Assembly: GCA_032718865.1 (NCBI GenBank)
Contig: JALUTQ010000037.1
Coordinates: forward strand, 372,001 to 436,000
Direction of reading: 5' to 3'
From: Tilletia caries
Taxonomy: Eukaryota > Basidiomycota > Exobasidiomycetes > Tilletiales > Tilletiaceae
Length of the DNA stretch: 64,000 bases
The notes below the pieces were generated by a model. The model was not told the origin of the DNA and ran no database searches. It worked only from the letters and a program-made list of their open reading frames with translations. Shown here piece after piece: positions 22,015 to 26,621 of this stretch. Positions within the stretch are counted from its first letter, which is position 1. The number at the start of each line of letters is the position of its first letter. A program made the translations under genes and the position numbers.

Positions 22015-22377
22015 TATGATAGCAAAGGTATTCACCTGCAAGGGAAGTTCTGAGACTAGAGTAAAGGGTGAGGAAAATGTGTGTGTGAGAAGCTGCATTG
22101 CAAAGGGAAGAAGAGAAGAATATCGAGCCGCTATATACATTCAGCTTGCTTGGTTGCTTCGGGGAGGAATAGAGGGATTGGTCGCAATGGTAAGGGAGCG
22201 AAAGAGAGAGAGAGAGATGCCCGGCCATTGCGTAACGAATTGGGAGCTGTGGAAAAGCGAGAAGAGCCGAGAGTGCGAGATGGAGTGAGAACGGAATCGG
22301 ATCGGAACGGAGCGGAGTGGAACAAAGGGAATGAGAATATCTGTGGATGCCCTGTCTAGCTGGTCAATGCTAGCACA
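22015..22377 (-). repeat. 3' LTR of the Ty3/gypsy element
   Basis: 363 bases. It contains the last codons and the TAG stop of pol (22356-22358). It is preceded in element sense by a GGTGGGGA polypurine candidate. The left flank is GGAAT. Confidence 0.92.
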
Positions 22378-25300: not shown

Positions 25301-26621
25301 TCTCCGGACTGGCACGACGAGGAGCCTCCGAGTGAAGGGTGGAGTCGGCCGCCAGTTGGATCCCCATGTCGGCCTCCTCGACACGACCCGGACGGCCATC
25401 CAAGGCGAAGGCGGCGTGATGACGGCGAAGGAGATCCACCACCTCAGGATGGGCGTCTCCCGCAGCATTTACGCCGACCTTGAAGGTCTCGTCCACCAGC
25501 CGAGTCGCTGCATCCTGGTCCAACGACGGCGTAGCCGGTCCTTCGTCCTCGAACGGGTCGAATGGCATGCCGGGCCCCTCAAAAGGTGACAGTTGCAGCG
25601 GAGGAGGATCGGGAACCGAGGATGTGAACGGGGGATGAAGGGTGAAGACACCGGAATCCGACACGGTGGAAACGTCTCCCACCCGCGCGGCAACTGCATC
25701 GGCGACTACTGTACCCTGTTCGAGCTGGAAAGCCTCGTCACCGTAATTGCCGATCAAAATGTGACGGACGGGGCCGTGGGTGAGAAGACCATTAGGCCCG
25801 GTCAAGCAGACACCTTGATCAGGGGAGACACTGAGGCGTGGGACGACAGTGTAATCGACCCCGGGTGCGAGACAAGCGGCGTTAACTTGAATCCAAGCCT
25901 GTGTTCTCGGAGCGATGGTAACCGCCGTAGTTGTGGGAAGCTCGACGTCGGCCGAGAATGGCTTGTCAAGCCGCTCGTGAACCGGGAAAGTATACTGACC
26001 GAGTCGAGCGCGGCCACGGACGGGCGAGATGCAGACGCCGTGAGCATCGATGAAATCCAGACCAAGGCACATACCCGGGGGAAAACGTGGTAAGACGTGA
26101 AAGTCTTGAGACGCCTCCAGGTGGACATGTTTGCCGTGCGGATCTTGAGCAGAAATGAAGAGGGGGAGCGTTACCCATCCCAGAGTCTTGGAAGAGCCAA
26201 CCCCATGAACCGTCATCGGCTCGCCGATCGGAGTGCCACCCATTTTGGAGAGAAGGGCGGCGTCGATACAAGACAGGGATGCCCCGGTGTCCAACAGGGT
26301 CGACAAGGCTCGGCCGTCTGTGTCGTTGATGCGAACGCGCGTGGAGAGAGGCACATGATGGCGATATCCTTGACCCGTCCCTGTCGAAGAAGGGACAGAG
26401 AGAACCACTACTCGTCCGAAAGCACGCTTCTCCTGAGCGAGAGGAGGTGCGGACTCGTTAGGGCGCAATGAGCGTTCAATGGCGAAGATGCTCCGATCAG
26501 CGAGGTAAAGTCCAGGCGACTCAGGCGTTGATTTGAGCTCGTCAACAGACTCGGAAGTCGTTTTGGATTGAGGTGCGTGAACAGAGAACATGGAGGGCGC
26601 AGTGCCAGGCTCCAAGGATAG
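22356..26621 (-). CDS. pol: Pol of the Ty3/gypsy element: protease, RT, partial RNase H, integrase, remaining RNase H
   Basis: About 1420 residues, read as a fusion to Gag after splicing (no suitable ATG near the N-terminus; MFSVHAP is internal). Order seen: aspartic protease with TLLDTGASLSC (Asp near 109), reverse transcriptase with YRRLNTHTVPDRYPLPTID and VVYIDDAV (near 577-584), and the first RNase H strand YILYVDASQNALAAILHQV (near 745-763). Then come the integrase zinc domain (H-x3-H...HCYTC, 853-892), the catalytic core (D near 920, D near 981, E near 1016) and a GPF/Y-like module (KQGPFEIEEV, near 1155). Finally, at 1298-1399, the rest of RNase H appears (RPVAYLSRLTG, AAELELVCLAW, VVTDHAPME, NVDALSRL). 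Normally RNase H is one block before integrase. All expected catalytic residues are present, but on both sides of integrase. Confidence 0.9.
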   Translation of the reverse strand, partial: LSLEPGTAPSMFSVHAPQSKTTSESVDELKSTPESPGLYLADRSIFAIERSLRPNESAPPLAQEKRAFGRVVVLSVPSSTGTGQGYRHHVPLSTRVRINDTDGRALSTLLDTGASLSCIDAALLSKMGGTPIGEPMTVHGVGSSKTLGWVTLPLFISAQDPHGKHVHLEASQDFHVLPRFPPGMCLGLDFIDAHGVCISPVRGRARLGQYTFPVHERLDKPFSADVELPTTTAVTIAPRTQAWIQVNAACLAPGVDYTVVPRLSVSPDQGVCLTGPNGLLTHGPVRHILIGNYGDEAFQLEQGTVVADAVAARVGDVSTVSDSGVFTLHPPFTSSVPDPPPLQLSPFEGPGMPFDPFEDEGPATPSLDQDAATRLVDETFKVGVNAAGDAHPEVVDLLRRHHAAFALDGRPGRVEEADMGIQLAADSTLHSEAPRRASPEKRAAMDLAIDQLLDWDVIEPSASPVSFPVVMVKQQQKWRFCVDYRRLNTHTVPDRYPLPTIDAIFNTLCGKKIFSSLDAIRGYHQLGIQADDRWKTAFVCHRGLFQYKRIPFGLRNAPAFFQRFMDRVLGPLRWNEAVVYIDDAVVASDTMPEHIQALERLFQSAESVWLKFSPSKCTFAVPSLVLLGRKVSGAGVAIWKDRAQAVASLARPTTLQELYHVLGLFGYYRAFIRGFAALASPLSGLLKGWRYESSDGRSRLINTEGQAVTASKVPIPWDSAQQSSFDQLKQAIANPPVLAHPDPSKPYILYVDASQNALAAILHQVHCSPDDTVPATPVVAAAIHLPLDQLPVGPARRQWVRWLEEDPFFGPILRRVRDAPGSDDDWSEEDGVLIRRIDDRVALPAGAVSTILRAVHDDQGHFGFTKTFLAAKRHFWRPHLSSMVRAWVKHCYTCQQSKSLPKVGRLDISNDPSLPFATISFDLLYGFPRSQSGNDAALAIQDLFSRMILLTPCHKEITAEGVAAIIADRVLRLGWRPKRLVADSESRVSGAVATSLAASLGAVLTPSSPYHQQANAVERAIQTTQQVLRTMASESKSHWDKRTLPAVELAMNSTPAVSTGFRPFDLVFVAHPDVVHAVFNSNEHTGVASFDERLAVAAERLSDARQAIVEARTAQKRRYDARRSAIPELRPGLLVWVRLRDRPLPGTIHDKLDSRKQGPFEIEEVVSPHRVRLRLPDDVDVDPVFNVEQLDFLPLADDPFAQDRLPTPAPVVPLPSGRAFAPAEDEPSPVAAEDPVSRAELLTDDELPHGSRVRRPPGNFREFQLGTLAPSRSDDLAILFRGPLFRPRRLIIDGQALTFQERPVAYLSRLTGIAERKLVAAELELVCLAWAYHKFAHLLEGAELTVVTDHAPMERMLTSTAVTAYGPTITRCRAWLLPHLGNIRFVYRPGPRHTNVDALSRLPIDQGRSSSVGGDVLALTS

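What the first reader, a model, noticed from the sequence alone, without database searches (positions are those of the whole stretch)
22356..26621. RNase H split in two around integrase in a Ty3/gypsy Pol
Directly after reverse transcriptase only the first RNase H strand is present (LYVDASQNALAAILHQV, with the first catalytic Asp), and the text passes straight into the integrase N-terminal domain. The missing remainder (RPVAYLSRLTG, the Glu in AAELEL, the Asp in VVTDHAP, the Asp in NVDALSR) stands at the C-terminus, after integrase and its GPF/Y-like module. All four acidic residues are kept, so the enzyme may assemble from two pieces or fold back within the polyprotein. Ty3/gypsy order is RT-RNase H-integrase in one block; I know of no described element with this layout. 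The LTRs are nearly identical, so the rearranged form has moved recently and is unlikely to be a dead chimera.
Basis: partly seen in the sequence, partly recalled or inferred. Interest (0 to 1): 0.88.

Follow-up and report, generated by a model that had tools for sequence, protein, structure and literature searches.

The report
RNase H split around integrase
A family of fungal jumping genes carries most of an essential RNA-cutting enzyme at the far end of its long protein, with the DNA-inserting enzyme lying between the two parts, and a predicted structure suggests that the parts come back together as one enzyme.

Summary
Pol (22356-26615, minus strand) has only the first two RNase H strands, with D750, before integrase; the rest (E1322, D1347, D1395) follows integrase at the C-terminus. 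It is no assembly accident: 30 of 30 loci fetched from the same genome show the order in DNA, 5 of them with a partial second half, and 131 of 232 protein clusters listed by three searches share it, in Tilletia and two further fungal orders. On an RT+integrase tree they form one clade (SH-aLRT/bootstrap 99.6/100), next to normal-order chromodomain elements. The four acidic residues are replaced in at most 2 of 131, gaps aside; both halves are under purifying selection. The break lies in 9 residues of Ty3 RNase H. A predicted model superposes on Ty3 RT-RNase H over 390 of 390 residues at 2.0 A with integrase left out; a second model did not settle the joint fold. Best explanation: one composite RNase H built from two Pol segments around integrase. 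Assembly is predicted, activity untested. Ten paper searches found no earlier description. A new variant of Ty3/gypsy.

The parts
28854..29220 (-). 5' LTR (367 nt)
   Evidence: no substitution against the 3' LTR, one 4-nt indel
22015..22377 (-). 3' LTR (363 nt); the last codons of pol run into it
29221..29225 (.). target-site duplication ATTCC, 5' flank
22010..22014 (.). target-site duplication ATTCC, 3' flank
26718..28796 (-). gag ORF, 692 aa
   Evidence: no Pfam match at E<=10, gag by position
26622..26726 (-). intron-like stretch at the gag-pol junction (105 nt, GTGAGT...TTTGTAG) that holds two in-frame stops
   Evidence: splicing not tested
22356..26615 (-). pol ORF, 1419 aa: protease, RT, RNase H first part, integrase, RNase H second part
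26163..26336 (-). aspartic protease (residues 94-151)
   Evidence: Asp_protease_2 E 7e-5, 23.9 bits against a cut-off of 24.3
24738..25205 (-). reverse transcriptase (residues 471-626)
   Evidence: RVT_1 E 2e-28
24315..24383 (-). RNase H first part: strands beta1-beta2 (residues 745-767), catalytic D750 at 24366-24368
   Evidence: RT_RNaseH_2 profile 1-50; Ty3 4ol8 324-373; model strands; D in 129 of 131
23052..24086 (-). integrase: H2C2, catalytic core, SH3/GPF-like module (residues 844-1188)
22419..22760 (-). RNase H second part: extra hairpin strand, beta3 to the end (residues 1286-1399), catalytic E1322 (22650-22652), D1347 (22575-22577), D1395 (22431-22433)
   Evidence: RT_RNaseH profile 29-90; Ty3 4ol8 383-475

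Best explanation
This is a recently inserted Ty3/gypsy retrotransposon of a clade in which the RNase H domain is broken in its beta2-beta3 turn and integrase stands in the break. Pol runs protease, RT, RNase H strands beta1-beta2, integrase (in several relatives followed by a chromodomain), then RNase H from beta3 to the end. The two parts most likely pack together on RT as one composite nuclease with the usual D-E-D-D site, and integrase hangs out of the hairpin on two flexible linkers. Shown here: the order, its spread, one clade, conservation, selection. Predicted: the joint fold. Inferred: that the composite is active, and that the layout arose once, probably by copying of the end of RNase H to the 3' end of pol (for example by template switching) and loss of the complementary parts.
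Against: pTM of the model is 0.51, no PAE was given, and AlphaFold2 knows the RNase H fold. Foldseek alone did not show the joint fold (4ol8_A 372 columns, about RT plus first half; 4ol8_B 11.2 A); it rests on VIA-align, which gives only the ends of the aligned range. The second model (P0177) has the same strands and helices but its VIA list of 50 rows is all integrase and Foldseek gives 13.3 A to 4ol8_A. No biochemistry, transcript or mature protein ends. Exceptions: protein models P0134 and P0041 lack D750, locus L030 has N; 10 of the first 120 proteins end before the second half. No intermediate with a whole RNase H plus a second partial copy was seen among 232.
Confidence: 0.8

Rival explanations
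1. The second part is a complete RNase H by itself: the extra stretch in front of it (residues 1277-1300) replaces beta1-beta2, and the first part is a relic.
For: Tilletia and Jaminaea-type elements carry an extra stretch before beta3, modelled as a hairpin, with an Asp at 1291 in the window.
Against: That position is Asp in 60 of 131 (where it is labelled 1290 by zero-based count); the family profile starts later, i.e. the stretch is shorter or different, in Pseudozyma, Melanopsichium and Ustilago members; D750 is kept in 129 of 131 and the first-half core has dN/dS 0.086.
Confidence: 0.07
2. The element's RNase H is dead or dispensable, host RNase H does the work, and both parts are relics.
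For: Nothing direct; breaking up a domain is a usual way to lose it, and a few copies lack D750.
Against: The acidic residues and both halves are under purifying selection across a clade found in two fungal classes, and the window copy inserted recently.
Confidence: 0.06
3. The parts meet between molecules, not within one chain: the first part of one Pol pairs with the second part of another, or, after protease cuts, with that of mature integrase. This is a variant of the best explanation and overlaps with it.
For: Ty3 RT works as a homodimer (recalled); the linkers beside integrase are of low confidence in the model (local 385-404 and 820-884).
Against: The single-chain model already joins them, though a single-chain prediction cannot show an exchange between chains.
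Confidence: 0.35
4. Assembly error, dead chimera or gene-model artefact.
For: Many database hits are automatic gene models on short contigs.
Against: 30 of 30 fetched loci of this genome read as DNA; 8 loci with a match over nearly the whole Pol and no stop (L001, L002, L004, L006, L007, L008, L012, L020); other species.
Confidence: 0.01

Closest known systems
Normal-order Ty3/gypsy elements with a chromodomain (chromoviruses and the nearest rows P0182, P0183, P0185, P0186, P0188, P0190, from unnamed sources)
   Same: RT, integrase with H2C2 and SH3/GPF-like module, RNase H of the Ty3 kind; chromodomain matches after integrase in split relatives P0030, P0126, P0132, P0134, P0173, P0177, P0180, some under Pfam's cut-off
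   Different: RNase H is whole and stands between RT and integrase there; no Chromo match in the window Pol
Ty3 of yeast (4ol8, 7q5b)
   Same: Same folds; the model superposes on RT-RNase H over 390 of 390 residues
   Different: Ty3 has an unbroken RNase H before integrase (order in 7q5b as matched by P0138; otherwise recalled)
Dual-RNase H elements: plant Tat/Athila, oomycete Chronos and Archon (PMC5348765: outline, abstract and passages seen; PMC9040795: search listing seen)
   Same: Ty3/gypsy elements with an unusual RNase H make-up
   Different: They have two RNase H domains, one of them acquired; here one domain is divided and none is added
Integrase-first elements (Gmr1 type, recalled; 8 integrase-first rows here)
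   Same: Changed order of Pol domains in Ty3/gypsy
   Different: Whole domains are reordered and RNase H stays whole after RT; here the change cuts inside a domain

Membership tests
Ty3/gypsy LTR retrotransposon (Metaviridae) | RT of the Ty3/gypsy kind | tested here: met
   RVT_1 E 2e-28; best solved relative is Ty3 4ol8, E 9.5e-50
Ty3/gypsy LTR retrotransposon (Metaviridae) | LTRs, target duplication, gag and pol frames | tested here: met
   the gag frame is named by position only
Ty3/gypsy LTR retrotransposon (Metaviridae) | order RT - whole RNase H - integrase | tested here: not met
   30 of 30 fetched loci. Descent from Ty3/gypsy is claimed from RT and integrase, as a variant in domain layout
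Chromovirus | chromodomain C-terminal to integrase | tested here: not met
   no Chromo match in the window Pol at E<=10; present in relatives
Gmr1-type order | integrase upstream of RT | tested here: not met
Dual RNase H elements | two RNase H domains | tested here: not met
   the two stretches cover complementary parts of one domain
Ribonuclease H (type 1 fold) | D-E-D-D site | tested here: met
   by alignment
Ribonuclease H (type 1 fold) | one folded domain | tested here: inconclusive
   predicted for the window; the second model did not settle it
Ribonuclease H (type 1 fold) | cleaves RNA in RNA-DNA hybrids | not testable with these tools
   needs a bench assay

The most novel reading that the evidence does not exclude
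The protease separates RT (with beta1-beta2) from integrase (with the rest of RNase H), so that RNase H exists only as a joint of two mature proteins. RNase H activity would then require RT and integrase to be together: a built-in coupling of RNA removal to the integration complex, and a natural split enzyme kept across a whole clade of retrotransposons.
Probability: 0.35. Interest if true: 0.88.

Novelty: new variant of a known kind. Interest (0 to 1): 0.78.

Why it matters
Domain order in Ty3/gypsy Pol is used to classify these elements, and known exceptions move or add whole domains. Here one catalytic domain is cut and another enzyme sits in the cut, yet the layout is kept by selection in a clade spread over Tilletiales, Microstromatales and Ustilaginales (for the taxonomy; for the proteins). 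If the halves work as one enzyme, it is a natural split nuclease with its partner enzyme inserted, and it makes the old question of how RT and integrase cooperate directly testable: RNase H activity would report whether the two are joined. It also shows that pipelines that only count Pfam domains can list a normal set (RT, RNase H, integrase) and miss the layout.

Tried and rejected
Self-sufficient second half: rejected as less likely, because the Asp of the extra stretch is D in only 60 of 131 and D750 is kept. Gene-model artefact: rejected by DNA of 30 loci. Capture of a foreign RNase H: the tree of the second half alone puts all 39 split rows on one side of a branch and the chromodomain sister rows among the nearest on the other, which fits descent from the element's own RNase H but is not decisive at 113 columns.

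Second structure model (P0177): meant as a replicate; inconclusive for the joint fold. Its RT lacks the fingers. Viral structure library: only distant Pol matches of high rmsd over long alignments; nothing used.

Tree rows dropped: one search used a third of the Tilletia rows, 94 of 162. One search used every sixth Tilletia split row, 31 of 75 normal rows plus 4 from this genome, and 4 of 8 integrase-first rows; rows with long branches or odd layout were left out by choice. One search printed a re-rooted tree on which Biopython shifted labels, so the supports given are those recomputed from the file. In one search the rows next to the split clade were other normal rows with weak support; the sister group is, where nearer rows were available.

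Scripts that failed: one search stopped at its last line (its per-pair values were printed) and one search stopped early; both were redone. Papers: PMC3248453, PMC10684912 and PMC9603552 were seen as passages, PMC5348765 as outline, abstract and passages, all others as listings only. Ten paper searches were answered; two found no paper.

Full report
What is there. The element lies on the minus strand between LTRs at 28854-29220 and 22015-22377, which differ by no substitution and one 4-nt TC-repeat indel, and is flanked by ATTCC on both sides. It has a gag frame (26718-28796) and a pol frame (22356-26615, 1419 aa). Pfam places RT at 471-626, the first half of RNase H at 715-764 (profile 1-50 of 100), integrase H2C2 at 844-897, an SH3/GPF-like module at 1132-1188 and the second half of RNase H at 1298-1359 (profile 29-90 of 105). 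Against Ty3 RT/RNase H (4ol8) the halves match residues 324-373 and 383-475, so the break takes 9 residues, in the beta2-beta3 turn by the strands of the model.

The host. The genome has 38.1 Mb in 40 contigs, and its contig C7 is 2,689,501 bases long, the length of the largest contig reported for Tilletia caries TC1_MSG (PMC10684912, passages seen). I infer that the window is from that assembly. The nearest protein is from T. controversa, 94% identical over the query region.

Not one odd copy. The genome search gave 41 matches, some of them pieces of one element; 30 loci were fetched. In 30 of 30 the first half of RNase H stands before integrase and the second half, or part of it, after; in 25 the second half covers at least 100 of 126 residues in one frame. 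Eight loci match nearly the whole Pol without a stop. In the same genome the Pfam RNase H profile gave 150 scored matches of 315 candidates (a capped list): 76 begin at profile position 9 or earlier, 70 begin at 27-30, 4 elsewhere (counted by hand). Six loci of the first kind were read as controls: in five, RNase H stands between RT and integrase with the second half right after the first or after RT; in L035 the first half was not hit and integrase is in two frames, the order still being normal.

Elsewhere. Three protein searches listed 232 clusters (one search listed 120 of 228). By family profiles built here 131 have the split order, 75 the normal order, 8 integrase first, 14 are incomplete and 4 fit none: P0030 (two elements in one model, the first of them split), P0110, P0137 (tandem) and P0187. 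Named hosts of split members: Tilletia species, Jaminaea pallidilutea, Parajaminaea phylloscopi, Pseudozyma flocculosa, Melanopsichium pennsylvanicum, Ustilago trichophora, Ustilago sp. UG-2017a (taxonomy, the last Ustilago not looked up). Several come from unnamed sources, among them the deepest, P0180 and P0181. Pfam confirms the order in members scanned from each group. The gap between halves has a median of 511 residues in split and -4 in normal elements.

One clade. On RT plus integrase (83 rows, 596 columns) the 43 split rows and truncated P0135 form one clade, SH-aLRT/bootstrap 99.6/100, and with six normal-order rows, of which the two scanned carry a chromodomain, 99.9/100. Rooting is by midpoint. 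Since normal order is found in the sister rows and throughout the other normal rows, the simplest reading is one origin of the split from normal order. In P0030, P0126, P0132, P0134, P0173, P0177 and P0180 the second half stands after a chromodomain match, so it was added at, or moved to, the end of pol; the window's branch shows no Chromo match.

Kept by selection. Of 131 split proteins D750 is D in 129, E1322 is E in 131, D1347 is D in 127 (3 gaps, 1 E), D1395 is D in 123 (8 gaps). dN/dS over independent close pairs is 0.086 for the first-half core, 0.115 for the second half, 0.082 RT, 0.116 integrase, 0.288 for the linker. The halves' distances correlate (r 0.86; second half with RT 0.92, with integrase 0.94; 101 of 131 proteins; no permutation of 999 as high); such correlation follows from co-inheritance and does not by itself show contact.

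How it most likely works. The halves pack together on RT into one RNase H, and integrase is carried as an insertion in the beta2-beta3 hairpin. Whether protease later cuts the chain, so that the enzyme is held together by contact only, is open; that is the novel case. The layout may bring RT and integrase together, or may be a neutral outcome of duplication and complementary loss; nothing here tells these apart.

Known or new. Ty3/gypsy by descent, new in layout. Dual RNase H elements and integrase-first elements differ as stated in Closest known systems. No earlier description was found in the ten searches named; the library lacks most subscription journals.

Noticed in passing
window 26622-26726 (-): Intron-like stretch at the gag-pol junction: GTGAGT...TTTGTAG, 105 nt, holding two in-frame stops; gag and pol are in the same frame on either side. 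GTGAGT with a pyrimidine-rich [CT]AG near the pol start was found in 13 of 30 loci, 5 of the 13 with a length divisible by three (no chance control). Splicing might set the Gag to Gag-Pol ratio.
   Followed up: partly
window 25668-25958 (-), Pol residues 220-316: Weak dUTPase-like match between protease and RT (NCBIfam dut, E 0.035-0.048, far under cut-off); Pfam's herpesvirus dUTPase model also touches P0133 (E 0.001) and P0136 (E 0.0025) at a similar place.
   Followed up: no
L007 to L030 and other loci of the same genome: Many copies of the family with one or two stops or frame breaks stand beside copies without any, at 55-79% identity to the window Pol, which points to a long-lived and diverse family.
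   Followed up: partly
P0134 (Melanopsichium pennsylvanicum): The protein model lacks the strand with D750 between RT and integrase; an intron placed by the gene predictor could explain it, not checked.
   Followed up: no
P0180, P0181 (unnamed sources): Deepest split members, 28-31% identical to P0132 over the query region; their hosts are not known and could extend the clade beyond Ustilaginomycotina.
   Followed up: no
window 27886-28023: Two tandem copies of a 69-nt repeat inside gag, 86% alike.
   Followed up: no
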